Shown here: positions 1 to 26,254 of the stretch, one piece after another
Layout: each line of letters starts with the position of its first letter
Position numbering within the stretch: the first letter of the stretch is position 1
DNA from: Fibrobacter sp.
GTDB taxonomy: Bacteria; Fibrobacterota; Fibrobacteria; Fibrobacterales; Fibrobacteraceae
DNA length: 64,000 nt
Reading direction: 5' to 3'
Assembly (NCBI GenBank): GCA_024398815.1
Contig: JAKSIL010000017.1
Location: 1-64,000, forward strand
Made by a program: the position numbers and the translations under genes
Notes under the pieces: generated by a model
Seen by the model: only the letters and a program-made list of their open reading frames with translations
Database searches by the model: none
Told to the model about the DNA's origin: nothing

Positions 1-440
1 TTCTGTTCTTCAGCGGCCTTCTTCTTTGCTTCTTCAGCTTCGGCCTTCTTCTTGGCTTCTTCAGCCTTCTTGGCTTCGGCGGCAGCCTTCTTTTCTTCGG
101 CAGCCTTCTTCTTAGCTTCTGCAGCTTCAGCCTTCTTCTTGGCTTCCTCAGCCTTCTTGGCTTCGGCGGCAGCCTTCTTTTCTTCAGCGGCCTTCTTCTT
201 TGCTTCAGCGGCTTCGGCCTTCTTCTTGGCTTCTTCGGCCTTCTTGGCTTCGAGAGCGGCCTTCTTTTCTTCGGCAGCCTTCTTCTTGGCTTCTTCAGCT
301 TCAGCCTTCAAGCGAGCCTGTTCAGCCTTCTTGGCTTCGAGAGCGGCCTTCTTTTCTTCGGCAGCCTTCTTCTTGGCTTCTTCAGCTTCAGCCTTCAAGC
401 GAGCCTGTTCAGCCTTCTTGGCTTCAAGAGCGGCCTGCTT
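1..440 (-). repeat. 87-bp (29-codon) tandem repeats encoding the coiled-coil tail
   Basis: Near-identical blocks recur at an exact spacing of 87 bases: CTTCGGCGGCAGCC at 74 and 161, and TCGGCAGCCTTCTTCTTGGC at 271 and 358. About five copies fill 1-440. The unit encodes AEEKKAALEAKKAEQARLKA-like sequence. The array continues past the left edge, so copy number cannot be counted. Confidence 0.85.
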
Positions 441-2327: not shown

Positions 2328-2353
2328 ACTGTTCCTTTCATTCTGAACGCGCG

Positions 2354-2361
2354 CAAATTTA
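2354..2361 (-). promoter_or_regulatory. TAAATTTG, candidate -10 element of the DASS transporter gene
   Basis: TAAATTTG lies 27 bases upstream of the transporter ATG and fits the TAnnTTTG form seen before other genes here. No convincing -35 hexamer is seen at 17 bases. Confidence 0.4.
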
Positions 2362-2419
2362 GTAATTATAATCACATTCGGCTATCCCCCAAAAAAATAA
2401 CGGACCCCACCTTCTTCTC

Positions 2420-2541: not shown

Positions 2542-5500
2542 TTACTTGACCACGACCTTTCCGGCACTCATCTGACTACCAGCGCGTACACGGAGCATGT
2601 AGAGACCAGTCTTGGGAGCTTCGAAAGCAAGCTTGTTGGTTCCGGCGACGGCCTTCGCATTTACCGTGGCAATCACGTGGCCCTTCATGTCCATAAGGTC
2701 GACTCGGGTCTTAGCACCGGCCAGGGCCTTGTCGGCGATGAACGACACATTGAGTTCCCTACCCACCTTTGCAGCACGAAGGTTGCGGACCTCGCCCACG
2801 ACCACAGTATTGGCGGTAGGTGCAACACGCACGGTAGCATACTTGGCGCGCGTTGTCAAGGAAACATCCAGTTCCTCGTTTTCGCCAACTTCAGAGGTCT
2901 TGCCGTCGATAGTCACGAACACCTTGTAGCCGTACTGGCGGATTTCAGAAACGCCCTTGAACGAGAGGAACCCGCGACGGTTGCTTGTAGCACTCAAAGC
3001 GACCTTCCATTCATTTTCACTAGCCGGCGCCTTCACGGACTTGGCCAACGCACGGTTGCCGTCCATGATGGAGAGGCTTACGTGGTTACCCAGACTTGCA
3101 GGAGGTTCTTCAGCCGTAAACGGCTTATTGGAAACGCCAAGCATATTCCAGGCGTCGGTCCTTCCGGCACCATCCTTGAGCACCATTTGCAGCGACCAGC
3201 TGTCGGCACTAGCAGCCTTTGCCAAGGCTCTGGACTTTTCAAGAGCAGAACCACCGAGAGTATCGGTGCCAAGGGAATCCGTTCCGACAGAATCCGTCAA
3301 GACAACAGCATCGGCCTTAAAGATGGGCTTGGAAGGCACCGTCCATTCAGTCGGGCCGGAAACCTTCACCCACACAGCCTCGTAAGGACCGATAGTTTCA
3401 ACTTCCTTGTAGTCGGCAGACAAAGCATCGTACTTCCAGAACGAAATCGGAGCCTCTTCGTTACCGTCAGCCTTATCGGCAGGCTTGTCGCCAAACAAGT
3501 CCATAGCCCAGCCGTGGGGGTTCGCAACCAAATTCCAACCGCTATTCAAGCTGTCCAGTTTCCAGACCACGTCGGAATTGTCGTCTTCGTAATCGGTACG
3601 AAGCGGCACAGTCCTACCCTGGAGAGAGCTGTACCAGAAGCCGCGATCCTTTACAATTTCGTCACCGCGTTCAAATGCCCTGTACTGCCAGAATTCAGCG
3701 GCAACAGTCGATTCATCCCACCAGTAGAACTGGGCATCGTCATCCCAGACAAGGGCGCTTGTATCGATAGCGGCAAGCGAAATCATCTGCCAACCATCAG
3801 CCACCACCGCGGCAACCTCCGAAACAACCGTGAAGCTCGTGTCGAACGCAAAGCTTTCACGATCGTCAAAGATGGAGAATTCCACGCTGTACGAACCGAC
3901 GGCCACGGGGAACAAATCCCACGAGCTCTCGAACGACGACGGGATGGAATCCGCAAACACGGTATCGACAACGACCGTTCCAGCCGAATCGATAACCACT
4001 GCAGAGAGCGAAGCTCCGCGAGTCACTTCGAAATCACTCGTAGTAAAGCTAAACCTGACCGCATTTCCGCTCTGCACAAAGTCCGCCTTCACGAATTCCA
4101 GAGGCGTGTGGTTGGCCTTGCCAAAGTAAGCCTTGAATTCCGTATTGTAAAGCGTTCTCGGCAAGGAACCGTTTTCGAACGTCACATGGCGGAATTCGTC
4201 GTCGCCAATGCGGGTGACCACGAGAGAATCAAGCATGTAACTAGAGTCAGGAACCGAGCGCACAAAGAACTGCAAGCCATTTACAATCTTCGGCAAAAGA
4301 ATCGAGCCGTCTTCGGCAAACGGATGCACGACAGGTTCAGCATCGGCGGCTCCAGTAATTTCTTCCAAGAGAATAGAACCGTTTTCAGATGCCAACTGGA
4401 TGCGGTTATACGTTTCGCACTGTTCCGCGTCACCCCAAACGGCATACATCTTGAAATAGCCCTTGGAGCTGCGTTCACCGGATTCCTTGAATGCCGCCGC
4501 CAAATCGGAGTTGAACTGCGTAAACACAGGTTCTCCATTTTCAACAGCAGATTTCAAAGCCCAGCCCACAACGCAAGTCGTAGTGGAGTACACAAGCATC
4601 GGCAAGTCGAGCACGGTATTCTCGTCACCAAGCACGAACTTCGAAGAGTCCATCCAGTCGCTGCCATAGAACACCGGTTCAGCGGACGTGTTCGTATTGA
4701 ATACGATACCGTAAATTTCAGCCTCGGTAGGCACAGTAAGTTCAACATCCTTATCCACAAGCAAATCGCCATTGACAAGAGACGGTCCGACAAGTCCGTT
4801 TTCGTCCACGACGTACAAGGAATCGGCATCAATAGCGGAATAGCCGCCAATCAGCATGTAAGAAGCCTTGAACTTAAGGCCGCCCTCCACTATCGGAACA
4901 GGCAGGCCAGCCTGCGGAACTTCGTACTTCATAATTTCATCATCGGCGACCTGCGAAAGCGTAAGGCTACCGATTTCCGCTTCGGCGAAGGTCACCATGA
5001 AGGTTTCCACATTTGCCGTAGTGTCCCAAATAGCATAAAGGGTATTCTCTACCTTGCCTTCCTCGAATTCAGCCACAAGACCCAAGGTCAACTTATCGAA
5101 CGCTTCCGAGACATCGGCATCCTTTTTCGAAGACCAACCCACAAGCGTGGCATCAGCACGATAAATACCCTTGGGCAACACGACAACATCGTCATCAAGA
5201 GTCATTTCCGCAGTACGCTTCCAGCCGTCGCCGAAGTACACATACGAGTCACCACCATTCACGTCGTAAGTGAGCCTAAACTTGTCTGCACTCACCGTCG
5301 CACGCAAAGCAGTGTTAGCCGCGATAACCATCGAGGTTCCGTTTTCGGCAGAATCAATCACAGCATCGCCGACTTCCATGAACAGGGATTCGCCCTCCGT
5401 CAAAGTATATCCCGGGTTTTCGACGAACTTCACATTAAAGGTAAGTCCACTTGCCGAAACAGGAATCAAGGTTCCCTTGGAATCGACCTTCACTGCAGGC

Positions 5501-8500: not shown

Positions 8501-11500
8501 TCGCCATTGACCCGCTGAATCAATTCAAACGTACCGAAGTTTTCTGGGTAACCGGTTTGCACACTAATCATGTCCTCAAACTCAGGGCAAGGTGCAATCG
8601 GATTTTCATCCCATATAGCATAGAGTTTCCTGTAATCAACTCCGTCCTGAGTTTCAATCATGGCGTTCTTGAGTTCAGCAATCAAAGCCTCGTTGTCAGA
8701 AAGATTTCCTGTGTAGCCAACAACTCCATAAGGAGAAATGCTCCACCCGACAAAGCAAGCGCCGTCCATACGGACTAGGCTGCCCAAGTCATCTTCTTCA
8801 CCATAGGCGAAGCTACGGAAGGATTCCCAGTCAGACTCGCTGCGAATAACCGGTTTATCCGTATTATCGACAAAGGCGAAGTTGTACTTGTTTTGAGAAC
8901 TGCTCCAGGTGACGCCATACGTGAACTCAGCCTCTTCATGTCCAAGCTTATAGGAGCCGTCCGTTTCGGCACTTACGATATTAGAGCTCTCCTTGACGAC
9001 GGGTTCCGTCGTAGAATACCCAGTCTTGCTCCGGGGAAGCAGGAAGATGTTATACTTCTTGACACCGAGTTTGATATGCACTCCGTCAACCGAAATGGTA
9101 TCGTGCCACAAGGTATCGGAGCCCAGCACCTGATAGGCGGAAAGCCAGGAATTTTCATCCTGTGTCAAAGCCTTCAACGTAAATGTATATTGCGGTTCAA
9201 CACAACCGGCGCCGCGTTCTCTCCATTCAGCGACAAGACCGGTAGGATAGTTGGGGTCAAGGCTCAGGTTAGCCAAGTCTTCATACGTGACAGACGTGAA
9301 CACTCCCTCGTTGCCATCCTTGTCAATCATGCGCCAGCCCATAAAGCACTTGTCGGTATGGTAGGGACTCCACAAATTACCATTGAAATCCTCACGAGCA
9401 AAGGTCTGCTCTGCGACCGCGGTTTCCGGAATAAAGACTTTACCGCTGTCACCTTCGAGAAGTCCAAGATCATACTTCACGTAGTAAGGGCCATCTAGCC
9501 TAAATTTCGCATGAAGGACCTTATTGTCGTCAACAATCACGGTATCGCCTTCGAACATGACCGTAGTACGGACACCGTTCATCACAGGCTCTTCGTACCA
9601 AACCTTGTCTAGGCGATAGCCATCTTCAGGAGCAGCCTCTACAACAAATACAAACGGGATTTCCACCTTCGGCACATTAAGAACATACGGATATTGAGAA
9701 TTTTCTCCGCCGCTAATATCCTCAAAACTATGTTCTATGCGTTCGGCGAAAGCATCATCCGTCGTGTCTATGGAGCCTAGGTATTGAACAAGCTTGATGG
9801 TTCCATGCCCGGCGCCATTATCCAAGTAAACATGCATAAAAACATCTATCGGGAAACAATCCCGATCATTGAAAACGGGATACAGCGTATTTACGTCATC
9901 CTCGTCTCCCGTATAATCTTTCAAGAAAATGTAATCCCAGCCTTTGGACTTTGCACTATCAATTAACTCATCAAGATCATGTACGCCAACAAAGTCACCA
10001 ACCGGCAAATCGGATTCACTGTTCAAGTTCCCTTGGGGAGTCCAGGTGGCGCACCCTCGGCTAGAATAAACCTTGGGGAAATTTCTTTCGGTGTCATCCG
10101 CGGAAACGACAAACTGTTTTTCCCACGGTATTTCTCCCCATTCCGGAGTTGTATTGGCATCATACGCAATAAACACATCGTTTGTTTTTGTGAGTGACAA
10201 AGCCTTTTGCAGCGAAGCGAACTTGAATGCAAAATTTTTAGGCGTATACCTTGGCACAAGGTAAATGCTGTCACCCATGCACAGCGGGTTCAAGCGAAGA
10301 ACGTCTCTTTTATTGCCGTCCTTGTCTACAACATCCCTTAGCAGGCCCCATTCTGAGTCCGGACCCTGGACACGGCTTCCGCAGACAATGGTGGCAAAAT
10401 CACCATTAACTTGGGTTTCAAAATTTTCCCTTGCATACGAATTCCCTTTATATGTAAACAACGCACTTCCATTCGTCAAATCCGGAGCAAATTCAAGCAA
10501 TTCCATATCGTAACCGAAATCAGGCTTCAGTTCAATGTCAAATGTCAAGGTATCGTTTGTCCTGGGCAACGGCATAAAGAACGAACGCGAGTCACTACTA
10601 TAGTAAGGACTTACCTTATCAACCCTCTCTTCAAGATAGTTGACAGAAAGAGTGTCTCCAGTCGTTTTGTCGCGCTGGGTCAGCTGAACCGCACCATGAT
10701 AGTTGTTTGCGTAATCCGGATTAACATTACTACCATCATAACTTGATATCGCACACATGTCATCAATCGATTCTGCGAACGCACACTCAGGAATCAATCG
10801 CAAATGAACTGTAGGGCGAGAAGCATCGTTTTCTCGATTCCATTCAACTGCCGCAGGCAGCGCCTCGTTCTCCTCAAGTCCATGTTCCGAGATAATCTCT
10901 GCGGTCACGCTATTGACGCTTTTACCGTCCCATATCCAAGCGCCACCATTCATTTCTGTTGGAACTTCATTGCTGACAAAGTGGAAGACTTTAGCCACAT
11001 CGTTTGCACTCACTGTTGAATCCGCCTTGTACAAGCCGTACACGTACGGCAGGCCCTCGTCAACATGAATCTGCATATCGGCGTCGTGACCATACACAAG
11101 CATATAAGCCGACTCGTTTTTCCCCATTTCGTCGTCATCGTTCTGGTAAATATGTTTTGGATATCCATTACTTTCAATCTTAGACTGAAGTTCATCGAGT
11201 TTCAAATCGTAATCCAGATAGTAGTTCAGCTTCCTTCCGTCCGGAGTAACGAAAACATACTGAGTGTAATCGGCATTATTCCACGCTCCAGCTTTCACTA
11301 AAGCCTTGTATAGGGAGTCAATGTACACGGTATCGGCGGAAGATTCTTCTACCAGGGGAATTTCTATAACCTTGCCATTACCGGGATTACGGAGGATGTT
11401 TTTCAGGGCTACCGCCAAAGCATCCGCATTTTCATATTCACTTACAGGTGAAAGATTGATGTTGTCTGTACCAGAAGGATTTCCACATATTAAATAATAG

Positions 11501-14427: not shown

Positions 14428-14545
14428 AAGATTCCTCAATACTAGACTTTACCCAAGAAAAGATAGTTATTTGGGGAATTCTTATAAGATGCTTACAAAA
14501 AAGGACTCTTCATTGCAACGCAACAATTATTCATTACAACACGGC

Positions 14546-14576
14546 GCTAATTAACGCAAAATTTGCGTTAATTAGC
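14546..14576. repeat. 31-bp perfect palindrome upstream of the 3961-aa gene
   Basis: GCTAATTAACGCAAA is followed by a single A and its exact reverse complement TTTGCGTTAATTAGC. It lies ~120 bases upstream of the 14427 start and 49 bases after the stop of the next gene at 14625. There is no T-run after it on either strand, so an ordinary terminator is not obvious; it may be an operator or an mRNA 3'-end hairpin. Confidence 0.8.
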
Positions 14577-14624
14577 AGAACGCGGAGGACGCCCGCAGGC
14601 GTACCGCACACAACCCGTTGAACA

Positions 14625-17600
14625 TCAACGAGTTACGATTTTCGCGAACGATGTCGCATTGCCCACACGAACGCGGACCATGTAGAGTCCGGGCTTCGGG
14701 AGGCTCATTGACAGGCGGTTGGTTCCCGCCACGGTCTTGAACGATGCACTCGAAACGACCTCGCCGCGAATGGAGACCAGGTCCACCTGAGCCATCGCCC
14801 CATTCGTCAACTCAAATGCGTCGAAATTGACGACAAGGGTGCCGCCCGCCTGCATGGCGCGGACATTCGCAATGTTCGGCAAAGCGATAGCCTTGGGAGC
14901 TTCGCCCACATAGAGCCCGACTTTCTTAGAAACCTGCGAAAGCGGAATCGTCAGCGACTCACCCTCGTGCATTTCTACCGTTTTGCCATCGACCGTCGCA
15001 TAAACGGCAAGGCCCATGCTATTCAGCTGCTTTACGCCAGCAAAGCTTAAGTAGCCAAGACGATTGCTGGTCGCACTCGCCTCCAGCGTCCATTCGTACG
15101 AACCGGAGCGTTCCGCCTTTCGATAGCACTTGGTCAAAGCGCGATTGTTTTCGGCAATGGAAAGCATCACTCGGCTACCCATACCGGCAGGAGGTTCCTC
15201 CACGTTTTTATCGTTGTCCGCGACGCCCACAAAGTTCCAGCTATCCATTTTGCCATTCTTATCCGTCAAAACGGCCTGCAGAGTCCAGCCAAATTCGTTC
15301 GCTGATTTCTTCAGGGCATCACCGGAAGCGGAGGGGGCCACGAACTGCTTTTTACCCACGGAATCCAGCTTATACGCAAAAGTCGGCGTCTTGGGCAAGC
15401 GCCATTCCGTTTCCTTGGACACATGAGCCCAAACAGATTCGTTAGCGCCTATGACAGAAGTTTCCTCGTATTGTCCCGTCTTTGAATTCCAGCGGTAGAA
15501 GACAACGTCGCGATTGTCATTTTCACCGTACAAGTCCACATCCCAGCTATACGGATTCGACACCATGTTCCAGCCGGAATAGACGCTATCCATCGTCCAT
15601 ACCACGGGCTCGACATTCTGGTTGTCGATTTGCGCTCCCGATTCGCCCCGTTCACGAAGCACCAGCGGACGACCTTCGATGGAACTGTACCAGTAACCGC
15701 GTCCGTTTTCGACAGCACTATTCTTGTAAAAGCGATGGTACTGCCAGAACCAGCCGTAATTCACGGACTCGTTCCACCAATATATCTGTGCATCGTCATC
15801 GTCAAAATCCAATTTTTCGAAATCGACATTGTCGAGCGCAACCATGTGCCAGCAATCTTCACAGTCAGCGGCAATCTCGTTCGACACCGCAAACTTCTGT
15901 TCAAACACCGACTTTCTTTCGCCATCGACGAAAGCCAATGCATTCAAGCGGTAATTGCCGGCAGGCAACGGTCCAAAGATTTTTTCATCGTCCCCGCCAT
16001 CCTGCAAGAATACATACCGTTCAGCAACGACTTCCGAATCGTTCTCGAGAGTCACAAAAACATCCTGGAATTCGTCCTTAATGGAATCCGGGACTGCAAA
16101 ATCCACAAAGAGCACATTGCCCGACAGCCAGACATCGTGTTTTGCAAGAACAAAGGGCTTGTTGTCGGGGGTTGTTTTGCTATAGACGACAACCTTGTAT
16201 CTGCCCTCTTCAAAACCTTCCAGCAAGTCTCCTTCTTCAAAGATATAGGTCTGGTTATTCCTATCCGTAAATTCGGCACTGATGAATGCAGAATCCCCAT
16301 GGAACGAGAACCTGTCTTGAATCCGGGACGGGAAAAGAATGGTCCCATCTTTACCGAAGGGATGGTCAACCGTATCTTTCGTCCCCCCTTCAAGAGGCTT
16401 CAGCTCGCGTAAAACTACAGTCGTCGACGCTTCCTTCAATTCTAGCTGGACAAAACCGTAGCGAGCCTCCGTACATTGTTCTGCACTACCCCAAACAGCC
16501 TCAAGTTCGTATTTTCCGCTTTGCTGAACAGCTTCATAGATTTCAGCATTTCCTGCCTCGATAAAGAACAAATCGTCATAAGAGGCAAAATTATCCGAGG
16601 CGCTCCAGCCCAAAACACATGAATGTGTCGTGTACACAAATTCCGGGAGCCTTAACCTATCCGTAGAATTTTGAGATTCAACAATTTCTATGAAACCTTT
16701 CCAGTTTTCACTAAAAAATACAGAATCTTCATCAACATCGCCTAGAGAAAGCTCAACATTTTTTGTCGGCGCAAACTCCGCCGCCACTGTCACACCCGAA
16801 CTCAAGAATTCGCGATCCAGGCTAATAATGTCCGTGTAAAAACACGACCTACGTACACCTTCACCATTGGTAAAAACAACATCGCCAACATTACCATAGC
16901 CATCATCGGGAACCGCCATCATAAGGAATGTATAGGCCGCACTAGCTTCAATCAAACCAATTCCTTGCTCTGTGACCTCATGCGCAATAGTATCGCCATT
17001 TACCACTTGCATTAGTAAAATCTTCCCGTGCTCCGTATTTCCAGACACTTTGCTAGAAGGCCAATCCCCTGACGAGACGTCTTCCCATTTCGGCATCAAC
17101 TTATTTGTATTCAACTTGTTTAACGATTCATACAAATCTAAATCGTACGAACTTCGCGAAAAACTTTCATCGCCTTCAGCATGCCAGTTGCCGGTTATAA
17201 ACTGTTCAGTGCTATAAACAAAAGGCAAATCATCATACAAAGTCATTTCAGCATTGAAGTCAAACTCAAAGCTTCCATTCTCAGACGCAAAGAAAAGCGA
17301 ATTCTTATTCTTGGGAGCGCCGGACTCGTCTAATTGCAAATCAAAAACAACTTGGTGGCCCTTCTCGGCAACAAAAGACGAATTTAGTTTCAACACTTCA
17401 CCCGAAGTGTAAGTCAAGGCATCATACTGATAACGAAAACTCTCATATTCTCCCGTCGCATCATTCAACTTTTCAAATTTATGCACAACATACTCGTTAT
17501 CAGGAACAACATTCACATTAAAATCAAACTTGACCGCTCCGCCTTTCGCATCCAAAGCGTTGGGCAATTTTACCACATACTCACCTTGTGAATTTTGTTC

Positions 17601-20492
17601 AAAGTAGTGTTTCTCCGTCGGCAATCCGCCAACGGACTGAGACAACTCCACAGCCCCCGCTCCACTCAAATCCAAAGTCACTTCAACTCCGCCACAATCA
17701 TCATTCTGAGTCCATTGCGCATAGAGTACATTTTCTTCAGTAGCATCCAAATTCTCTATGAGATTTATGTCAACAGTTGTAGAGGGAGTTCCTTTCTTTT
17801 CTGTAGACCAGCCGTCAAAGCAATAACCGTCGGCACGATACAATGTCGGCAATTCATAATCAATTGTAGGAGACAAAGGTGCACTGCCCGTCATATTATC
17901 GTAAAATATTTCAGCGGTCGTATTCTTGTCATACGCAACTTGGTAATTTATCTTTTGAAGAGAAGGTTCTATTCTAAGCTGCCAAGATACGCGCGTTGTT
18001 TTATTTTGGTCTCCAGGTTCGTATTTATCGCCAAAAACGTCCATGAGCGTCGAAAGATCAAAATACCCGTCATCATCAACATTCACATTAAAATAAACGG
18101 CACCTGTACGCGTTTCCCAACCTGCAATCACATCGTTCGGGTCAGTAACCAGTTCCGCATCGTCCCAGTCGAACTTACCGCAGCCAAGGCACACTTGCAC
18201 GGTCCAGTAAAAAATCTCGTAGCCCGGATGATTAATTTTCACACGCATCTTCTCTGCGATTGGAATTTCTGGAGGATCAGACACATCGATATTAGAAAAG
18301 GACATGGACCCCATCAAGACTTCGTCCCGCTCCGAATTTTTTCCATAGGCATCGACAATCAGCTCAACCGCAGATCCACGATTATCAAGAATTGTTTCCG
18401 CATTTCCCAATGTACATGTATAGGGGTCTTCACTAATCGGAGCCATCAACACAACAATCGAATTCGTTTGCGCAGTGTCAAGAGAAAGAACATTTGAAAA
18501 ACGAAGACCCTTAAGCGTTAGGAGGCCTGCAGCATCGCCATCCTGAGTCAAATACATGGGTCCGTTCCCCGTGTTTTTATACACTCGGGAAATATCTTCC
18601 CCATAAAAGAACCTATACGCTTCCATAACATTTTCTTCAACGACATCGCCATTTACATCCAGGGTCCTCTCAACCACATAGGGAATTAACGCATCCTTAT
18701 CCGCCCACGTTGTCGTAGAAACTGGATTCGTGAAGAATACATAGGAATATTTATCACTATCCGTATTTTTTATCAGCTCATAACTGGAATTGCCAGCAGC
18801 ATCTTTTTGCTCTACAAGGTAAGTGACATGGTATTCGGTATAGTTCAAAAAGACTGAATCAGAGACAAAAGTCTGTGAAAAATCAACAACATCTTTATAA
18901 CCGTTGTCCTTAACATACCACTTTAAACTTTCACCATAACTTTTTTCTTTATCCAAGTCCTTAAAAAAATTATACAAGTCGCCATCTATCATGCCCTCCG
19001 AATTCGTATATACCTCAAGCTCGTAGCTATAATTTTTAACCAAGGCGCCAAACGCCTTCAACGCTTCATCAATACCAAGCCGTTCAGCAATCAATTGTTT
19101 CATGCCAACAAAAATCACTTTTACAGGTTCCATCGTAGTACTCGACAAAACGGGATAGCCTCCTTCAGAAAAACTCCATTTTTGGTCAGCATCAAGATTA
19201 AAACTTAATTTAAAAGCGAATTCACCCGTTTTCATGTCTTCAACAGGCAAACATCCATTGACATAGCGGCTCTCAGCTACCGAGCATCCGTCAAAAGAAG
19301 ACCTGTAGTTAGCCAATTTAAATCTCGCAAAATATCCACCTACATCAACACTTCCATAAGCTTCATCATAGCTATCATCCAAAGTTCCATCGACAAACAA
19401 CTGTCCGACAGCCCTGTCAACTTTATCCTTTCCCACATAATAGTTCGAATACACACTCTCTTCCGCAGAGCTATTCCATTCAAATTGGCCAACAATGTAA
19501 CCTAGGTAAACAACATCAGGAGTGGTCGTATATGAGTAAATGCTGTCAATGCCGTTCACGCCACAACTATAGATTTTTCCAGAAGACATGCTTCCGACAA
19601 TTCCACCCAAATATCCAGAAGCCCACGGAGCACCCATAGCTTGTTCTATTTCGCCAATGCTATCAACAACGCTCAAGTTAGAAATAAGCACACGAGAAAT
19701 TCCACTATAACTAGCCTCGCCAGCAACTCCACCAAGTGCATAATGATCCGCTAAATAAGGATTACTGTACGACAGAACAAGCCTACTGATAATCACTCTG
19801 ACATCGTTCATGACAATATTACCAATGGTAGACTGGTTCACTTTTCCCGCAAGAGTTCCAGCCCTCACGCCCTGTACCCGCGCCCCGTCAATCTTAACCG
19901 ACTGCACAGTAGTTCCCATAAGGGAACCCGCCAAGACACCATCATAGACCTGCGAAAAGAGCGAGACGTCATTATCTTGAGCGAGAACCGAAGCATTTTC
20001 AAAAACAATGTCGTGAACATTAGAGCTGGTCAAACTATTGAAAAATCCGTAATAACTTTCCGAGCCATCGTCATGGGCATAACAAAAATTTTTTATAACA
20101 TAGGGATTACCCGTCGTCGGGTTAATTTCCGCAAAAAATTCCAAGGCCACAGCGCTACCGAGAGGAACAAAGTCTTGATCACAAACGGTAAAAGTACTTG
20201 AACTTGAAAAACTATTTATTCCGCCAAAATCAATGTCGGAACCGACAACCAATTTCTTTTGCTCTCTGTTACTCAAAGCCGAACTTAATAAACCGGGAAC
20301 ACCTCCATCAGTAGTGTTGTACCAGCCCAAAAAGCACTGCAAATCAGGATCGTCGCTGTCGGCCTGAGTCAATGTATAAGTGTGGATTCCATCAACATCG
20401 ATAGCGTCATCCACACAATAATACGCACCTTGCGCAAAAGCGAATGTCGCCCCAAACAGGGCTAAAATCAAAAATCTCAATGTGTTTTTCAT
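14625..20492 (-). CDS. Large secreted surface protein (~1955 aa), paralogue of the 3961-aa protein
   Basis: ATG at 20492 with AGGTG upstream gives MKNTLRFLILALFGATFAFAQ, a clear signal peptide; the longer open frame to 20534 adds 14 residues and would hide the signal sequence. The N-terminal ~400 residues have Gly-rich beta-helix/GLUG-like turns (GGVAGEASY, GGIVGSMSS). Listeria-Bacteroides-like units end at VLYAQW (~922), KLMPKW and ELEAVW. The Trp-rich module (WHMVALDNVD ~1547, IYWWNES, FWQYHRF, RGYWYSS, GWNMVSNPYSW ~1639) and the C-terminal sorting-type domain (GLYMVRVRVG...AKIVTR) match the neighbours. Role probably surface attachment or matrix; no catalytic domain recognised. It lies between genes of the same kind, but the terminator after the upstream gene suggests a separate transcript. 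Confidence 0.87.
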   Translation of the reverse strand: MKNTLRFLILALFGATFAFAQGAYYCVDDAIDVDGIHTYTLTQADSDDPDLQCFLGWYNTTDGGVPGLLSSALSNREQKKLVVGSDIDFGGINSFSSSSTFTVCDQDFVPLGSAVALEFFAEINPTTGNPYVIKNFCYAHDDGSESYYGFFNSLTSSNVHDIVFENASVLAQDNDVSLFSQVYDGVLAGSLMGTTVQSVKIDGARVQGVRAGTLAGKVNQSTIGNIVMNDVRVIISRLVLSYSNPYLADHYALGGVAGEASYSGISRVLISNLSVVDSIGEIEQAMGAPWASGYLGGIVGSMSSGKIYSCGVNGIDSIYSYTTTPDVVYLGYIVGQFEWNSSAEESVYSNYYVGKDKVDRAVGQLFVDGTLDDSYDEAYGSVDVGGYFARFKLANYRSSFDGCSVAESRYVNGCLPVEDMKTGEFAFKLSFNLDADQKWSFSEGGYPVLSSTTMEPVKVIFVGMKQLIAERLGIDEALKAFGALVKNYSYELEVYTNSEGMIDGDLYNFFKDLDKEKSYGESLKWYVKDNGYKDVVDFSQTFVSDSVFLNYTEYHVTYLVEQKDAAGNSSYELIKNTDSDKYSYVFFTNPVSTTTWADKDALIPYVVERTLDVNGDVVEENVMEAYRFFYGEDISRVYKNTGNGPMYLTQDGDAAGLLTLKGLRFSNVLSLDTAQTNSIVVLMAPISEDPYTCTLGNAETILDNRGSAVELIVDAYGKNSERDEVLMGSMSFSNIDVSDPPEIPIAEKMRVKINHPGYEIFYWTVQVCLGCGKFDWDDAELVTDPNDVIAGWETRTGAVYFNVNVDDDGYFDLSTLMDVFGDKYEPGDQNKTTRVSWQLRIEPSLQKINYQVAYDKNTTAEIFYDNMTGSAPLSPTIDYELPTLYRADGYCFDGWSTEKKGTPSTTVDINLIENLDATEENVLYAQWTQNDDCGGVEVTLDLSGAGAVELSQSVGGLPTEKHYFEQNSQGEYVVKLPNALDAKGGAVKFDFNVNVVPDNEYVVHKFEKLNDATGEYESFRYQYDALTYTSGEVLKLNSSFVAEKGHQVVFDLQLDESGAPKNKNSLFFASENGSFEFDFNAEMTLYDDLPFVYSTEQFITGNWHAEGDESFSRSSYDLDLYESLNKLNTNKLMPKWEDVSSGDWPSSKVSGNTEHGKILLMQVVNGDTIAHEVTEQGIGLIEASAAYTFLMMAVPDDGYGNVGDVVFTNGEGVRRSCFYTDIISLDREFLSSGVTVAAEFAPTKNVELSLGDVDEDSVFFSENWKGFIEIVESQNSTDRLRLPEFVYTTHSCVLGWSASDNFASYDDLFFIEAGNAEIYEAVQQSGKYELEAVWGSAEQCTEARYGFVQLELKEASTTVVLRELKPLEGGTKDTVDHPFGKDGTILFPSRIQDRFSFHGDSAFISAEFTDRNNQTYIFEEGDLLEGFEEGRYKVVVYSKTTPDNKPFVLAKHDVWLSGNVLFVDFAVPDSIKDEFQDVFVTLENDSEVVAERYVFLQDGGDDEKIFGPLPAGNYRLNALAFVDGERKSVFEQKFAVSNEIAADCEDCWHMVALDNVDFEKLDFDDDDAQIYWWNESVNYGWFWQYHRFYKNSAVENGRGYWYSSIEGRPLVLRERGESGAQIDNQNVEPVVWTMDSVYSGWNMVSNPYSWDVDLYGENDNRDVVFYRWNSKTGQYEETSVIGANESVWAHVSKETEWRLPKTPTFAYKLDSVGKKQFVAPSASGDALKKSANEFGWTLQAVLTDKNGKMDSWNFVGVADNDKNVEEPPAGMGSRVMLSIAENNRALTKCYRKAERSGSYEWTLEASATSNRLGYLSFAGVKQLNSMGLAVYATVDGKTVEMHEGESLTIPLSQVSKKVGLYVGEAPKAIALPNIANVRAMQAGGTLVVNFDAFELTNGAMAQVDLVSIRGEVVSSASFKTVAGTNRLSMSLPKPGLYMVRVRVGNATSFAKIVTR

Positions 20493-20590
20493 AAGCACCT
20501 TGATTAAAAAATACCTCAAAAACGTGAATTGCACGGCAATTCATTTTCCTCATTTAAAATAACAAAAAAATACGATTTGCGGGTGAAGTA

Positions 20591-20619
20591 TAAAAAAAGA
20601 GCCCGCAAAATGCGAGCTC
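20591..20619 (-). terminator. Rho-independent terminator after the 1875-aa surface protein gene
   Basis: Minus strand: GAGCTCGCA, TTT loop, TGCGGGCTC (one G-T pair) and then a run of T. It lies just after the stop codon at 20627. Confidence 0.85.
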
Positions 20620-20626
20620 CTTCACA

Positions 20627-23600
20627 CTATTTTACCAGAACCTTGCCGCCAAGGCTTTGACTGCCTATTTTCAGGCGGACAAAGTACACGCCGCGCTTCG
20701 GAGCCTTGAGAGAAGTGCTGTTGGCTCCGTATGAGGCCGTGAAGTTGCTGGTTGACACGACCTTTCCGTCAAGAGACACCAGCTGCACAACGGCACGGGC
20801 TCCGGAGAGGTTCTTGCCGGCATCGAAGCTCACCTGCAGATTTCCGTTGCCACTTACGGCCTTGAAGCCGCCCAGATTGCTGTTCGAAACGACCAGGGCG
20901 CCCTTAGCCACGCGGACATTCACTTCCGTAGGTTCTGCACCGAGCGAGATTTGCACGGATTCACCACCGCTGACATTCTGAGTGCGGCCGTTTACGGTCA
21001 CATACAGGGAGAGACCTTCTACAGCGAGAGCTTCGGCACCTTCGAACGAGAGCGTCGCTTCGCGGGCACTCGTAGCAGAGGCCATAAGCTTCCAGCTGAA
21101 TTCATCGGTGCCAGTCTTGAGGCTCTTGGCCAAGTAAGACTTGCCTTCGACAATCGAGAGCGTCACATGGTCACCCATGCCGGCAGGCGGTTCTGCGATA
21201 TTTTCAGAAGCGTCTCCTGCGCCGAGGAAGTTCCAACTGTCCTTCTTGCCGAATTCATCAGAGAGCACAGCGCGCAGGCTCCAGCCAGATTTAGCACCGG
21301 CCTTGGCCAAAGACTTTGCATCGGTGGTCTTGATATCAAATACCGGCTGCGACGAGATTTCCCATGTGGTAGGTTTGCTCACGTGTGCCCACACCGCTTC
21401 GTAGGGGCCGAGAGTCGAGGGAATTTCGTATTCGCTGGTTTCTGCGTTCCAACGCCAGAATTTCACATCGCCGCCCTTGCCCTTCGCGAGGTCCACATAC
21501 CATCCGTGCGGATTTGCGACGAGGTTCCATCCACTGTAAAGACTATCGAGTTTCCAGACAATCTTGGAATCCTTCGTCGGAGACTCAGCCTTGAGCACAA
21601 GCGGAGTTCCATTGCTGGTGCCGTACCAGAAGCCGCGGGTGTTTTCGTACTTCGTACGGGAATCGTAGCTGCGGTACTGCCAGTAATCGCCAATGGGGTT
21701 CGTTTCGTCCCACCAGTAGTAGGCAGCATCTTCGGTAGCCTTCAAAGATTCACTGTCGAGAGCTGCAATGGAAACCATTCGCCAGGAGCGGGGCTGCACA
21801 AGGATTTCGCCAGAAACATCGAACGAAGAAGTTTTCGTAACCGTATCGGAAGTATTAGCTACCGTGAGAACCACATCGTACTTTCCGATGGGAGCCGGAG
21901 CCAGCTGCCATTCGCCCTTGACAATCTTCGTCGCCAAAGAATCGTACAGCAAGGTATCCAGGTAAACACCTTCGTCGCCAACGACTTCGATGCGCACGCT
22001 AGTCTTCTTGCCGACTTCAGCAACAATGGCTCCGTAACCGAGCTTGATGGCATTGCCAGAGAGTTCGATATCCGCCTTGGAAATCGTCACTTCCGGGCCC
22101 TTGCTACTGCTGGAACCAAGAGAAGAACTGCTGGGGATTTCAGAACTGCTGGAGTAATCGGAGCTGCTGGATGTAGGAGTCGAACTACTGGAGTAATCGG
22201 AGCTGCTGGATGCAGGAGTCGAACTGCTGGAGTAATCGGAGCTGCTGGACGCAGGAGTCGAACTGCTGGAGTAATCGGAGCTGCTGGACGCAGGAGTCGA
22301 ACTACTGGATTGCGGAATATCCTGGACAATGGCGAGCACGATAAGATTGGATGTCACATTGTCGAAATCCTTGCTCCAACGCACAAACTTCTGGTTCTTT
22401 CCGAGAGGCACCTCGGGAGCCTTGGCCGCATCGCCATAGGCAACAGTCTGCTCGTCCAAAATGTCGCCTTCGCTCGAAAGGAACACCACGGAGAATTTAT
22501 TCACAATGGAATCAAATACGGCAGTGTAAACCGCAGCACCAGTCACAGATACGACATCGGGATTCCAACCCTGGAACTTGTAGGTGTACTTGGCCGTGGC
22601 AGCCTTCGTCGGAATGCTGCCATCGTACTTCGGCATCGTCCCGTAAACAAGGCTCTGCTTTTGGAGTTGTACATCGCCATTTACGAAGGAAACTTCATAC
22701 TTGTTGAGCGTGGAATCGAATTTGGCTTCGTACAAAGCGTCACCCGTCACAGCAACAACCTTCGGATTCCATTCCTTGAATGTATAGGTGTATGCGGCGG
22801 TAGCAGCCTTTTCAGGAGTCTTGCCGTTGTACTTGGGCATGGTTCCGTATTCCACAGAAGATTTCTGCAGTTCTACACCGCCATTTGCGAACGTTACATT
22901 GTACTTGTTCACAGTAGAGGTAAACACTGCTTCGTAAACGGCATTGCCCGTTACAGCGACAACTTCCGGATTCCAACGCGAGAAAGAGTAAGTAAATTCA
23001 GCCGTAGAGGGCTTTACAGGAGTCTTGCCGCTGTACTTGGGCGTAGTCCCGTAATCGACCTTGGTATTTTGAAGCTCCTCGGCACCGTTCATGAATTTTA
23101 CAGCGTACTGGTTCACTGTGGTGTCGAATACAGCCTGGTATACGGCAGCGCCTGCAACGGGAACAACCACAGGATCCCATTCTGCAAAGGCGAAGGTGTA
23201 CTGTGCGGTGGCTTCACGAGTCGGCGTTTTTTCGCAAACCGGAGTTGCGCCAAAGTCAAAGTCCTTTTCCTGAATCGTCTTGTCACCATCGACGAACGAA
23301 ATCTTGTACTGGTTAATCGTAGAGTCGAATACGGCTTCGTAAACGGCATCGGCAGTTACAGAGACAATCTTCGGTTTCCATTCCTTGAATGTATAGGTAT
23401 ATGCGGCGGTAGCAGCCTTTTCAGGAGTTTTGCCGTTGTACTTGGGCATAGTTCCGTAATCGACCTTGGTATTCTGCAATTCAACATCGCCATTCATGAA
23501 TACCACATCGAAGCTCTTGACAGAGTAAACGGCATTAACAGTCATGTCTTCAATGACGTTATCGAAATCCGCATCCCAGCCGTCAAACTTATAGCCGGTA

Positions 23601-26254
23601 CGGTCTTCGACATCCGGGGCCTCTGCGGCTTCACCATCAAGAACCTTGCGCTTCGACGTCGTCTTGACGAAATCTTCGGCAACGGAGTCCCACTTATAGT
23701 ACACGAACGAAACCACGTGCGGACCGATGGCAGGATTGTTCTTGTCGGCAAAGAACGGCAAATCATCGTTTGCACCTTTTTTGAAGGTCCATACAGCAGG
23801 GTCCTGCATTATGTTGAGCTTTACGGCAAAGTCCTTGTTCTGCATGTCGGCAGCAAGCAAAGTTCCGTTGCCGATGGTGGAATCGGCGGTCTTCGAAAGA
23901 TTGCTCACAGAACCGTTTCTGACGTTGTAACCCAAAAGCCAGCGATTGCCGCTATTGAAAGACTGACCCACGGGATTTTTCCAGTTTGCGGTAATGTCAG
24001 CCCCGTTGCTCAAAGAACCGAATGCATCGATATATTCCACATCGGCAGCGCTAAAGTGGTAGTTCGAAACGATTTCACGAACCACGTCGCCCTGCAGCAA
24101 AGCACGGCCAAACAGATAGCCCGCCTTGACGCCAGCCTTTTCAAGGGATCCTTCCGGCATGATTATGGAGCCTATGGAATAAGTATTGGCAATTTTCACT
24201 TCGGCATTGTCGTAAACAGAACCGAAAAGCCCGCCCACAAGCAGGGAGTCGCCCCTAAACGAAGCGTCATCCACATCGATATCGCCCAAGACAGACACGA
24301 AAGAGGCGGAGTCCAAAGAAGCACACACGCCGCAAAGGCCGCCCATGTAAGCCTTGCCGCCCGCAGCACTAGAGCCTTCACTCAGCAATTTGAGAAGCGG
24401 CGCATCGCCATTTTCAAGAGCAACGGAAGTAAAAGAAACGGAACGGCCTCCATTCTGCGCATTCATAAAGGCACCAATGATACCACCCGCCTTGACGTTG
24501 TCGGTACTGTCGGCTACAATGACACTTCCGCCAAAATGAAGATTACTGAACTCAAGTTCCTTTTCGCGATAGATATCGGCAGAGCCCACAAAGCCACCGA
24601 CAAATACACTGTCAGAACCCACCTTTACAGCGGATTCTACCGTCATGTTCGAAGTTCCACCCGTCAAGCCTTCACCATTTGCAGCAAAACAGGCCGAACC
24701 GGCAAAACCGCCAAGCAAAGCCTTGACTGCAAGATCCGGAACTTCTACGGCACTGGCGGCAATGCGCAAGTTACCCGTCACGGTCGAACCCACCATGGAA
24801 ACAAACGCCGCGTCATTATCGTTGGCAATATTGTCCATAGAACACGGAGAACCCATGCCCAGCATACCGCCGGCATAATAGCGATAGGTTCCGGCCTCGG
24901 TCAAGGAGTCCGCAATGTTCACATTCACATTGTTGTCCGTAAACTTGATGCTGAAACCGCGAGCGAGGTTGGAACGCCCCACAAGGCCACCCACAAAAAC
25001 GCTTTCACCTTTAGCCCCCTTGATTTCCAGGGAATCCACGACGTTTTCGGCGATATTCAGCGTAAAGGCCTTATCTACATCAGTTCTATTTATAACTTCA
25101 CCGATGAGGCCACCCATGGCCGTACCGCCGGAAATTTTCGTGAAGTACTCCTTGTCACCGGACATGTCCAAAGTATTGCGTCCAATGAAGTAGTTTATCC
25201 AAGTCGAATAGGCGTAAACACCGAACAAGCCACCCAAGGCCGAAGGCGTTTCCGCACCGCTTTCGTCAACAATTTGCACCCTTACATTGTTGTCGTAAAC
25301 GGAATCCTGAATGGCCATACCGGCAATACCCCCCAAGAAAACGGTGTACTGCGAAGGCAGGGTCGGATAGTCATTAGTTCCCGCATCCTTGGTCCATTTA
25401 GAACCGGCAAAGTTGCCGTCTGCCGAAGTAATGCTCAAATTGTTACGAATGACGATATCATCTGTAGCCTGGATGCCCTTGATTGAAGTTTCCGTGATGT
25501 AACCGGCAACACCGCCAGCCATCGGAGCCACAACTTCGACATCCTGCAAGGTAATGTTGAAAATTGCAGACTGGAAAACAGTACCGGCAAGGACTCCCGC
25601 CGGATAGTAATCGGCACCCGCCTTGGACGCGTCTCTCTTAACGCGGCTATCCTTGACAACAATGCGAACGTCCTTAAACGCAAAATCATCCACGCGGCTC
25701 TGACGAATGTTCTTGATAAAGCCGACAGGGGAATCCATCGAGACATCGTCGGTAATTTCCTTTTCAATGCAAAGGTTTCTTACTTTGTATCCACTGGTGT
25801 CTGCCCCGCCCAGGAACGCGGTTTCATAAGGCATGTCTAGTGGTTCAAAACTGGCAAGGCAGCCTTCATCATCGGACTTCGGATCAAAGCCCATCAAGTC
25901 AATGCTTGAAGCAAGTCTCATGATGTAGCCACGATGTTTACTCTTCCAAGTATTGACGTAGGAGTTAAAGACCTCGGAAACCGTATTACCATCCACAAGT
26001 TCACCGGAAGTCATGTAGCAATTATATTTGCCGTAGGTTTCATGGATTTTGGAGGCGCCGACAGTACAGGGAGTGTCGTCCTGGGATACAAACAACGTAG
26101 AACCGCCACTTACCGTAGCAGTCTTACCCAAGCCCGTCGGGGCAGTGACCGTACCATCGGTCCACAAATTCAAATAGGTTTCACCGACAGCCAAAGCACT
26201 GCCGGCACCCAGAAGGACAGCAACCACACCAACGAAAGAACGCATTTTAGTCAT
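20627..26254 (-). CDS. Large secreted surface protein (1875 aa) with GLUG-like region, InlB-type repeats, Ser-rich linker and C-terminal sorting domain
   Basis: Start ATG at 26254 with GGGAG upstream; MTKMRSFVGVVAVLLGAGSALA is a signal peptide. Residues ~200-800 contain many GLUG-type turns (GGLVGRSN, GGFVGSAD, GGLFGSVY). Residues ~860-1310 are seven or eight InlB-type units of ~60-68 aa, each with motifs such as YTFKEW and AVYEAVFDST. A Ser-rich linker (TPASSSSDYSSSS repeated) follows at ~1320-1385. The Trp-rich module begins at WRMVSIAALD (~1488) and includes AYYWWDE, RGFWYGTS and GWNLVANPHGW (~1575). The last ~90 residues (GVYFVRLKIG...KVLVK) look like a type IX-type sorting domain. Surface adhesion or matrix role inferred; no enzyme domain seen. 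Confidence 0.88.
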   Translation of the reverse strand: MTKMRSFVGVVAVLLGAGSALAVGETYLNLWTDGTVTAPTGLGKTATVSGGSTLFVSQDDTPCTVGASKIHETYGKYNCYMTSGELVDGNTVSEVFNSYVNTWKSKHRGYIMRLASSIDLMGFDPKSDDEGCLASFEPLDMPYETAFLGGADTSGYKVRNLCIEKEITDDVSMDSPVGFIKNIRQSRVDDFAFKDVRIVVKDSRVKRDASKAGADYYPAGVLAGTVFQSAIFNITLQDVEVVAPMAGGVAGYITETSIKGIQATDDIVIRNNLSITSADGNFAGSKWTKDAGTNDYPTLPSQYTVFLGGIAGMAIQDSVYDNNVRVQIVDESGAETPSALGGLFGVYAYSTWINYFIGRNTLDMSGDKEYFTKISGGTAMGGLIGEVINRTDVDKAFTLNIAENVVDSLEIKGAKGESVFVGGLVGRSNLARGFSIKFTDNNVNVNIADSLTEAGTYRYYAGGMLGMGSPCSMDNIANDNDAAFVSMVGSTVTGNLRIAASAVEVPDLAVKALLGGFAGSACFAANGEGLTGGTSNMTVESAVKVGSDSVFVGGFVGSADIYREKELEFSNLHFGGSVIVADSTDNVKAGGIIGAFMNAQNGGRSVSFTSVALENGDAPLLKLLSEGSSAAGGKAYMGGLCGVCASLDSASFVSVLGDIDVDDASFRGDSLLVGGLFGSVYDNAEVKIANTYSIGSIIMPEGSLEKAGVKAGYLFGRALLQGDVVREIVSNYHFSAADVEYIDAFGSLSNGADITANWKNPVGQSFNSGNRWLLGYNVRNGSVSNLSKTADSTIGNGTLLAADMQNKDFAVKLNIMQDPAVWTFKKGANDDLPFFADKNNPAIGPHVVSFVYYKWDSVAEDFVKTTSKRKVLDGEAAEAPDVEDRTGYKFDGWDADFDNVIEDMTVNAVYSVKSFDVVFMNGDVELQNTKVDYGTMPKYNGKTPEKAATAAYTYTFKEWKPKIVSVTADAVYEAVFDSTINQYKISFVDGDKTIQEKDFDFGATPVCEKTPTREATAQYTFAFAEWDPVVVPVAGAAVYQAVFDTTVNQYAVKFMNGAEELQNTKVDYGTTPKYSGKTPVKPSTAEFTYSFSRWNPEVVAVTGNAVYEAVFTSTVNKYNVTFANGGVELQKSSVEYGTMPKYNGKTPEKAATAAYTYTFKEWNPKVVAVTGDALYEAKFDSTLNKYEVSFVNGDVQLQKQSLVYGTMPKYDGSIPTKAATAKYTYKFQGWNPDVVSVTGAAVYTAVFDSIVNKFSVVFLSSEGDILDEQTVAYGDAAKAPEVPLGKNQKFVRWSKDFDNVTSNLIVLAIVQDIPQSSSSTPASSSSDYSSSSTPASSSSDYSSSSTPASSSSDYSSSSTPTSSSSDYSSSSEIPSSSSLGSSSSKGPEVTISKADIELSGNAIKLGYGAIVAEVGKKTSVRIEVVGDEGVYLDTLLYDSLATKIVKGEWQLAPAPIGKYDVVLTVANTSDTVTKTSSFDVSGEILVQPRSWRMVSIAALDSESLKATEDAAYYWWDETNPIGDYWQYRSYDSRTKYENTRGFWYGTSNGTPLVLKAESPTKDSKIVWKLDSLYSGWNLVANPHGWYVDLAKGKGGDVKFWRWNAETSEYEIPSTLGPYEAVWAHVSKPTTWEISSQPVFDIKTTDAKSLAKAGAKSGWSLRAVLSDEFGKKDSWNFLGAGDASENIAEPPAGMGDHVTLSIVEGKSYLAKSLKTGTDEFSWKLMASATSAREATLSFEGAEALAVEGLSLYVTVNGRTQNVSGGESVQISLGAEPTEVNVRVAKGALVVSNSNLGGFKAVSGNGNLQVSFDAGKNLSGARAVVQLVSLDGKVVSTSNFTASYGANSTSLKAPKRGVYFVRLKIGSQSLGGKVLVK
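22143..22298 (-). repeat. Four 39-bp tandem repeats encoding the Ser-rich linker
   Basis: Copies start at 22143, 22182, 22221 and 22260, exactly 39 bases apart, each encoding the 13-residue unit TPASSSSDYSSSS (one variant TPTS). Poly-Ser linkers of this kind commonly separate modules in Fibrobacter secreted proteins. Confidence 0.9.
22330..23640 (-). repeat. InlB-type repeat-coding block with near-identical DNA segments
   Basis: Units recur about every 200 bases within the 1875-aa gene. Segments of ~90 bases beginning at 22761 and 23370 differ at only a few positions although they lie three units (609 bases) apart, which points to recent duplication or gene conversion. Confidence 0.75.

What the first reader, a model, noticed from the sequence alone, without database searches (positions are those of the whole stretch)
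2542..26254. Three tandem giant secreted paralogues covering 23.7 kb
Proteins of ~3961, 1955 and 1875 aa, all secreted, all with N-terminal GLUG/beta-helix-like regions, different InlB/Listeria-Bacteroides-type repeats in the middle, and the same C-terminal module and sorting domain. Shared ends with divergent middles suggest an expanding surface-protein family, possibly for attachment to different targets.
Basis: partly seen in the sequence, partly recalled or inferred. Interest (0 to 1): 0.55.

Follow-up and report, generated by a model that had tools for sequence, protein, structure and literature searches.

The report
Swappable-tip giant surface proteins in Fibrobacter
Three huge neighbouring genes in a gut fibre-degrading bacterium encode surface-type proteins with one fixed anchor and a very variable outer end, and in related species that outer end is exchanged between species like a cassette, which suggests the cells keep changing what they show to the outside.

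Summary
Three minus-strand genes (3961, 1955, 1875 aa) share a ~500-residue C-terminal module (35-40% identity) ending in a type IX secretion (T9SS) sorting domain. "Expanding" is not supported: the three fall in different old clades, and gene order is conserved in relatives, at a slot between a peptide-binding-protein gene with divergent beta-barrel genes and a DASS transporter. The module occurs in 59 of 61 genus genomes and 115 of 167 Fibrobacterota genomes examined.

The unexpected part is how the family varies. In relatives the mature N-terminus (predicted beta-helix plus part of the stalk) behaves as a swappable cassette: neighbouring genes are nearly identical while N-termini are often undetectable at DNA level, and other species pairs share nearly identical N-termini on diverged C-termini. 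Breakpoints lie just after the signal peptide. N-terminal parts have lower third-codon GC than the anchor (75 of 80 genes), also in the window's genes. Stalks carry one to twelve or more ~200-residue units with a co-varying cysteine pair.

Best reading: T9SS-anchored contact proteins whose exposed tip is diversified by recombination. Ligand and selective agent are unknown; exchange is shown in relatives, not in this genome. My literature searches found no description.

The parts
2542..14427 (-). P1, giant T9SS-type surface protein, 3961 aa from the ATG at 14427
14359..14427 (-). P1 putative signal peptide (by eye)
10840..14358 (-). P1 N-terminal region, weak GGxxG repeats, GC3 about 0.40-0.51
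4240..10242 (-). P1 stalk: about 10 compound units of ~200 aa (InlB-like half plus a second part), Cys pair in most units
2545..4098 (-). P1 shared C-terminal module
2545..2721 (-). P1 T9SS sorting domain TIGR04183 (23.7 bits)
14625..20492 (-). P2, 1955 aa from the ATG at 20492
16467..17945 (-). P2 stalk: compound units (3 LYAVW-type motifs; 2 units found by the unit HMM)
14628..16154 (-). P2 shared C-terminal module; GC3 rises from 0.41 to 0.57-0.67 near its start
14634..14816 (-). P2 T9SS sorting domain TIGR04183 (23.5 bits)
20627..26254 (-). P3, 1875 aa
23735..26185 (-). P3 N-terminal region, predicted right-handed beta-helix with 11 GGxxG repeats (GLUG-like)
22301..23722 (-). P3 Listeria-Bacteroides repeats PF09479 (~77 aa units, counted by eye)
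22143..22309 (-). P3 Ser-rich linker coded by a 39-nt tandem repeat (4.3 copies)
20630..22084 (-). P3 shared C-terminal module: Ig-like domain, Trp-rich domain, beta-sandwich, sorting domain
20630..20815 (-). P3 T9SS sorting domain TIGR04183 (29.2 bits)
26567..27322 (+). divergent small outer-membrane beta-barrel gene; relatives lie upstream of the first giant gene in 20 of 20 fetched loci of this slot
3..2375 (-). DASS transporter gene that closes the slot downstream (runs off the window; long Ala/Lys/Glu tail)
29184..31133 (-). SBP_bac_5 gene that bounds the slot upstream

Best explanation
The three genes encode long surface proteins exported by the type IX secretion system and held at the outer membrane through their conserved C-terminal end. 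The N-terminal beta-helix would be displayed furthest from the cell on a repeat stalk whose length is set by the number of repeat units, most units of the P1/P2 type being stabilised by a disulfide. Shown by computation: the architecture (sequence and models), the conserved slot, and, in relatives, exchange of the N-terminal cassette between species with breakpoints behind the signal peptide. Inferred: surface anchoring, distal display, the disulfide, and that the window's own genes evolve the same way. Most likely function: contact or recognition at the cell surface, with the tip diversified because something biological (phage, host antibody, protozoa, competitors) or varied plant surfaces select for rare variants.
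For: TIGR04183 over cut-off in all three; 57 sorting-domain matches at E <= 0.001 in the genome; SprA over cut-off at 1122 bits. Module in 59 of 61 genus genomes and 115 of 167 phylum genomes. C-terminal model pLDDT 91.2; P3 N-terminal model is a beta-helix, best VIA match IgA1 protease 7uvk, Z 21.9 over 286 residues at 3.6 A. Cassette exchange: L083/L084 88-98% DNA identity in the blocks upstream, no aligned block from 6032 to 9278, then 94.9%; L041/L055 C-terminus 0.97, N-terminus 0.44, and L055/L038 C 0.83, N 0.96; L069/L071 first gene N 0.99, C 0.83, second gene N 0.36, C 0.86. Unnamed genus genomes: G050/G001 N 0.98, C 0.77, SBP 0.99; G013/G050 N 0.39, C 0.82, SBP 0.99; G003/G005 second gene N 0.95, C 0.78 while first gene N 0.52, C 0.85. 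N and C identities uncorrelated in four of seven sets tested (Mantel r 0.12-0.39, p 0.12-0.31). GC3 N 0.50, middle 0.51, C 0.64, DASS 0.72; N below C in 75 of 80. Cysteine pair: 119 both, 19 neither, 1 single of 139 units.
Against: The exchange is shown in relatives, not in the window's genome: its sampled relatives are at best 79-87% identical in the SBP/rnc stretch. In three of the seven sets N and C identities do go together (P3-type r 0.75, p < 0.001; two six-species sets r 0.85, p 0.065 and r 0.67, p 0.053), as expected with mostly vertical descent. The PorU match is below its cut-off (357 of 420 bits). Pfam's sorting-domain model is below cut-off. Two alleles searched in 80 genomes were found at >= 95% only in 3 and 2 genomes, sources included. 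No ligand evidence. P3's own GC3 drop is mild (0.52-0.59 before, 0.62-0.67 in the C-terminal part). Many of the named loci are metagenome assemblies, where chimeras are possible.
Confidence: 0.6

Rival explanations
1. Plant-fibre adhesins: each N-terminal type binds a different polysaccharide, and diversity reflects diet and plant surfaces rather than biological attack.
For: Fibrobacter is a plant-fibre degrader; PMC6851124 (passages read) proposes that T9SS anchors F. succinogenes cellulases. Below the IgA1 proteases the beta-helix matches include polysaccharide lyases, epimerases, polygalacturonases and tailspikes; beta-helices often carry sugar sites (general knowledge).
Against: No carbohydrate-binding or glycosidase domain in 26 scanned relatives. 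Species with nearly identical neighbouring genes carry N-termini at 38-50% identity. Table 2 of PMC6851124 names no protein of this description.
Confidence: 0.35
2. Ordinary fast-evolving surface filaments: the N-terminus simply diverges quickly under weak constraint, without exchange.
For: N- and C-terminal identities go together in the broad P3-type set; low GC3 could reflect weak selection on codon use.
Against: Weak constraint cannot give N-termini at 95-99% identity on C-termini at 77-83%, nor loss of DNA similarity that starts right after the signal peptide inside well-conserved flanks.
Confidence: 0.1
3. The swaps are artefacts of metagenome assembly.
For: Most named loci are metagenome-assembled (titles); conserved flanks around a variable core are hard to assemble.
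Against: The same pattern appears in genomes of 9-30 contigs at 99-100% completeness (G004, G013, G044, G046, G050), with breakpoints again at the start of the gene. Even chimeras would require both alleles to exist behind nearly identical flanks.
Confidence: 0.05
4. Contact-dependent competition proteins whose variable end is a toxin.
For: Giant, secreted, modular proteins with a swapped end; polymorphic toxins are a known kind (PMC3482391, search listing only).
Against: The variable end is N-terminal and, in P3, a beta-helix with regular glycines; no toxin domain in the Pfam scan of 26 relatives; only 134 and 197 bp between the window's genes, no room for a small immunity-like gene.
Confidence: 0.03

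Closest known systems
T9SS type A cargo proteins (gingipains, recalled; Fibrobacter BTD/FPm-1 enzymes, PMC6851124)
   Same: C-terminal TIGR04183 sorting domain at the end of a large secreted-type protein
   Different: An additional ~400-residue module precedes the sorting domain, no catalytic domain is seen, and in relatives the N-terminus is an exchanged cassette
SprB-type giant gliding adhesins (recalled; type B proteins associate with PorP-like barrels, PMC9143113, abstract start in a search listing)
   Same: Giant T9SS surface repeat proteins near an outer-membrane beta-barrel gene
   Different: Type A sorting domain; the neighbouring barrel matches no PorP/SprF model
GLUG / IgA1-protease beta-helix domains (PDB 7uvk, 3n6z)
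   Same: Predicted fold (Z 21.9 and 20.2) and GGxxG repeats
   Different: No protease domain found; Pfam Glug not reached in the window proteins
Surface proteins with conserved anchor and exchanged hypervariable N-terminus, such as streptococcal M protein (recalled)
   Same: Conserved signal peptide and anchor, N-terminal alleles moved by recombination
   Different: T9SS-type C-terminus, cassette of 1.4-3.2 kb or more, different folds, exchange between species of a gut fibre degrader
Hypervariable Ig-domain protein module of Thermococcales (PMC8416519, abstract start in a search listing)
   Same: Large hypervariable protein at a defined locus, set in the context of self/non-self conflict
   Different: Archaeal; different domains and gene content

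Membership tests
T9SS type A cargo | C-terminal sorting domain over curated cut-off (TIGR04183) | tested here: met
   23.7, 23.5, 29.2 bits, cut-off 23
T9SS type A cargo | Pfam PF18962 over its gathering score (second model of the same domain) | tested here: inconclusive
   18.6, 18.2, 19.6 bits, cut-off 27: matched below cut-off; filing rests on TIGR04183
T9SS type A cargo | N-terminal Sec signal peptide | not testable with these tools
   Basic residues plus hydrophobic stretch seen by eye
T9SS type A cargo | Host encodes the T9SS translocon (SprA) | tested here: met
   1122 bits, cut-off 200
T9SS type A cargo | Host encodes the PorU sortase | tested here: inconclusive
   357 bits, below cut-off 420, E 1e-106
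GLUG-motif proteins | Pfam Glug PF07581 | tested here: not met
   None of the three at E <= 1; 1 of 26 relatives at 0.0062
GLUG-motif proteins | Right-handed beta-helix fold | tested here: met
   P3 only: model pLDDT 85.5, Z 21.9 to 7uvk; P1 and P2 not folded
Listeria-Bacteroides (InlB B-type) repeats | PF09479 or TIGR02543 over cut-off | tested here: met
   P3 only, 27.6 bits against 27; P2 below both; P1 no hit
Fibro-slime cellulose-adhesion proteins | Fibro-slime domain | tested here: not met
   No such match in the Pfam or NCBIfam scans at E <= 1
SprB/SprF-type adhesin pair | Neighbouring barrel is of the PorP/SprF family | tested here: not met
   Barrel 26567-27322 hits PF13557/PF13505 only, no NCBIfam model
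Exchanged-tip surface proteins (M-protein-like behaviour) | N-terminal alleles shared across diverged backbones, conserved signal peptide and anchor | tested here: met
   In relatives; not testable for the window's genes, which have no close relative

The most novel reading that the evidence does not exclude
A genus-wide system of allelic surface identity in Fibrobacter: a fixed slot holds one to three giant T9SS proteins and variable beta-barrel partners, whose exposed N-terminal cassettes are kept as discrete alleles and exchanged between species, independently for the first and second gene, under rare-allele selection by phage, host antibody or neighbouring cells. The cassettes would act as a surface serotype that decides who can bind, infect or recognise the cell.
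Probability: 0.3. Interest if true: 0.8.

Novelty: new variant of a known kind. Interest (0 to 1): 0.62.

Why it matters
Fibrobacter is a main cellulose degrader of herbivores, and what its surface shows to plant fibre, phages and the host is poorly known. A near-universal family of giant T9SS-type proteins with exchanged tips gives named loci and allele pairs that can be tested for fibre attachment, phage sensitivity and host recognition, and it extends cassette exchange of surface proteins to type IX cargo in this phylum.

Tried and rejected
Recent tandem duplication was rejected: the three genes sit in three different clades of the C-terminal tree. Relation to fibro-slime proteins was rejected. 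A PorP/SprF partner was looked for and not found. A solved structure for the whole C-terminal module was not found: the 50 Foldseek rows shown have TM-scores of 0.17 or less on the query, VIA rows match single Ig-like domains or spread over several at large rmsd, and a profile search of PDB sequences gave nothing below E 0.13, with gingipain C-terminal domains at 0.32-0.53. That absence is no proof of a new fold. Silent N-terminal copies: for the two alleles searched there was one >= 95% match per genome, so no sign of an in-genome reservoir, for two alleles only. Phage-borne relatives: 2 pattern matches in viral contigs, neither a relative. Whether the beta-barrel follows the N-terminus or the C-terminus gave opposite answers in two sets (set A: OMP~C r 0.42 p 0.016, OMP~N r 0.02 p 0.40; set B: OMP~N r 0.83 p 0.015, OMP~C r 0.13 p 0.17), so no claim is made. 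A first cysteine count with a crude regular expression (76 of 139 units usable: 56 both, 16 neither, 4 single) was replaced by an alignment-based count; units are related by descent, so its Fisher P value (1.7e-22) is not a probability of independent events. The regression of length on unit number (46 proteins, r 0.74, slope 290 aa) is loose because N-termini also vary in length. Promoter- and terminator-like sites were near shuffle level (22 against 14.8; 16 against 14.1), with one good terminator-like hairpin after P3 (20623-20595), so an operon is not established. Literature: nine searches of the held library listed no paper that by title, abstract start or passages read describes this family; most subscription journals are missing there. 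I read passages of PMC6851124 (and section 6 part 1), PMC3079729 and PMC8092306; other papers only as search listings.

The GC3 control ORFs are the longest non-overlapping open frames of 600 aa or more and may include false genes.

Full report
What is there. The window holds three minus-strand genes in tandem, 2542-14439, 14625-20534 and 20627-26254. The first plausible ATGs give 3961 (P1), 1955 (P2) and 1875 (P3) aa. They share a C-terminal module of about 485-520 residues (37% P1/P3, 35% P2/P3), and each ends in a T9SS type A sorting domain over the NCBIfam cut-off. P3 has a GGxxG-rich N-terminus, about six Listeria-Bacteroides-type repeats of ~77 residues (counted by eye) and a Ser-rich linker. 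P1 and P2 have longer compound units of about 190-220 residues: ten LYAVW-type motifs in P1, three in P2, against at most one in 200 shuffles. The genome has 57 sorting-domain matches at E <= 0.001, a clear SprA and a PorU-like protein below the family cut-off, so a T9SS is very likely present.

Where it lies and how old it is. The C-terminal module occurs in 59 of 61 genus genomes and in 115 of 167 Fibrobacterota genomes, 25 of 40 genera. In the 84,980-species collection all 65 named loci returned are Fibrobacter or other Fibrobacterota (the best 80 of 90 hits were kept). In a C-terminal tree of 90 rows P1, P2 and P3 fall in different clades with genes of other species; the forks that hold P1 and P2 most closely have support of only 83, while the fork that holds P3's 27-row clade has 98. 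Of the 65 named loci, 21 hold two or three family genes. In 21 of 21 the first gene has no compound unit, and in 19 of 21 a downstream gene has at least one: the order seen in the window (P3, then P2, then P1). Flanks are conserved: the DASS transporter was found in 44 of the 65 loci and the SBP_bac_5 gene in 25 of 65, the loci being cut at 10 kb or less on each side; divergent small beta-barrel genes lie between SBP and the array, and carB lies beyond DASS in L045. DASS also follows P2-like single genes at another slot, next to a GGDEF-FHA gene in L041. So this is an old arrangement and not a recent expansion. One more copy of the module lies elsewhere in the window's genome (C34).

Anatomy. 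The C-terminal model (P3, 79-row alignment, pLDDT 91.2) shows strands throughout: an Ig-like domain, a Trp-rich domain, a beta-sandwich and the sorting domain (domain limits are my reading). No solved structure matched the whole. The P3 N-terminal model (27-row alignment, pLDDT 85.5) is a right-handed beta-helix; the best second-look matches are helix domains of IgA1 proteases and a Bacteroides homologue (Z 21.9 and 20.2), with polysaccharide-acting enzymes, phage tailspikes and the adhesin PfbA further down. A shared fold shows no function. An HMM of the compound unit found 139 units in 50 of 90 family proteins, from 1 to 12 per protein (the proteins with 11 and 12 are cut at locus ends, and open frames reach 7225 aa). 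In these units a cysteine before the GW motif and one after the AVW motif are both present in 119, both absent in 19 and single in 1 of 139; the single case has a nearby cysteine that may be misaligned. I infer a disulfide in most units.

The unexpected part: cassette exchange. Among relatives with similar C-termini, the first ~500 residues do not follow the rest. L041 and L055: C 0.97, N 0.44. L055 and L038: C 0.83, N 0.96. L083 and L084: C 0.97, N 0.49. L069 and L071: first gene C 0.83, N 0.99; second gene C 0.86, N 0.36. At DNA level L083 and L084 are 88-98% identical in the upstream blocks, have no aligned block from 6032 to 9278, and resume at 94.9%. The 96.5% block of L041 and L055 stops at 5790, just after the conserved signal peptide. 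L038 is a mosaic: close to L055 at first and to L041 further on. In the P2-like group median identities are N 0.46, C 0.82 and DASS 0.99 (11 loci; Mantel N~C r 0.15, p 0.13). Against this, in the wider P3-like set N and C identities do go together (16 loci, r 0.75, p < 0.001), and two six-species sets lean the same way (r 0.85, p 0.065; r 0.67, p 0.053), so vertical descent still shows.

Control for assembly artefacts. I fetched 20 loci from other genus genomes, most of them highly complete with few contigs. The same pattern holds: G050/G001 N 0.98, C 0.77, SBP 0.99; G013/G004 N 0.94, C 0.80, SBP 0.99; G013/G050 N 0.39, C 0.82, SBP 0.99; G029/G126 N 0.51, C 0.92, SBP 0.96; G126/G003 N 0.95, C 0.91, SBP 0.93; second gene of G003/G005 N 0.95, C 0.78 while their first gene has N 0.52, C 0.85. 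So first and second genes need not move together. DNA profiles show the cassette of G050/G001 at 95-100% between neighbours at 71-90%, and no match across the cassette of G013/G050 although SBP and DASS lie at 91-97%. Mantel tests: set A r 0.12, p 0.18 (10 genomes); set B r 0.39, p 0.12 (6); set B second gene r 0.15, p 0.31 (5). Two alleles searched in 80 genomes were found at >= 95% identity in 3 and 2 genomes, the sources included, once per genome.

Composition. GC at third codon positions is 0.37-0.51 in P1 residues 1-1600 and P2 residues 1-1400, 0.54-0.59 in P1 residues 1601-3400 and 0.57-0.67 in the C-terminal modules; ten neighbouring genes have 0.60-0.74; P3 shows a milder drop (0.52-0.59 in residues 1-1200, 0.62-0.67 after). 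Across 80 complete relatives the first 500 codons average 0.50, the middle 0.51, the last 500 codons 0.64 and the adjacent DASS gene 0.72; N is below C in 75 of 80. In 75 long non-family open frames from the same loci and the window the first third averages 0.66 and the last third 0.64, with N below C in 29. The shift is thus not a general trend of long genes here; whether it reflects foreign origin or relaxed codon selection is open.

Possible partner. In 20 of 20 fetched loci one to three small divergent beta-barrel genes lie upstream of the first giant gene, and they too are variable (median identity 0.72 and 0.37 in two sets). The window has one at 26567-27322. A role as partner is a guess.

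Function. I favour a surface contact or recognition protein whose tip is diversified by recombination. The swap pattern, the rarity of each allele and the near-identical neighbouring genes look like rare-allele selection, but ligands and agents are unknown. The adhesin rival, that tips bind different plant polysaccharides, remains alive. No carbohydrate-binding, glycosidase or toxin domain was found among 26 relatives (Por_Secre_tail in 16, Flg_new 4, Flg_new_2 2, T6_Ig_like 1, Glug 1).

Relation to the literature. PMC6851124 (passages and section 6 part 1 read) proposes that the basic terminal domain of F. succinogenes enzymes is a T9SS signal and lists OmpA, TPR, fibro-slime and pilin proteins for adhesion. 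PMC3079729 (passages) treats fibro-slime proteins and the FPm-1 module. None of the passages I saw describes this family or cassette exchange. Nine searches listed nothing closer.

What is not shown. Exchange in the window's own genome (no close relative: 79-87% DNA identity in the SBP/rnc stretch at best); expression; surface location; the structure of the P1 and P2 N-termini; any ligand.

Noticed in passing
window 3-2375 (-): The DASS transporter gene carries a C-terminal tail of several hundred residues rich in Ala, Lys and Glu, coded in part by an 87-nt tandem repeat (1-467), running off the window.
   Followed up: no
window 20951-25486 (+), 2470-5778 (+), 52808-56881 (+): Very long open frames (1511, 1102, 1357 aa) lie antisense to giant genes; probably a by-product of codon composition.
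   Followed up: no
window 34982-40642 (-): A further giant protein, 1886 aa, with repeated segments that look like fibronectin type III and a lipoprotein-like start (by eye); it lacks this family's C-terminal module.
   Followed up: no
L072:16105-17595; G056:C1:11189-12685: Apparently broken family members: a 497-aa C-terminal remnant as second gene, and a copy whose frame holds an internal TAG.
   Followed up: no
L041:4411-5334: A P2-like single-gene locus lies next to a GGDEF-FHA (diguanylate cyclase) gene, which hints at c-di-GMP control of the surface protein.
   Followed up: partly
window 27424-29055 (+): 543-aa protein with only a sub-threshold outer-membrane barrel match (TDE2508 type); no relative at E 1e-8 in the 95 loci then held.
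   Followed up: partly
L074 and L032 (same contig JAEERM010000007.1): Two family arrays, each followed by its own DASS gene, lie on one 65.6-kb contig, suggesting that an array-DASS unit was duplicated.
   Followed up: no
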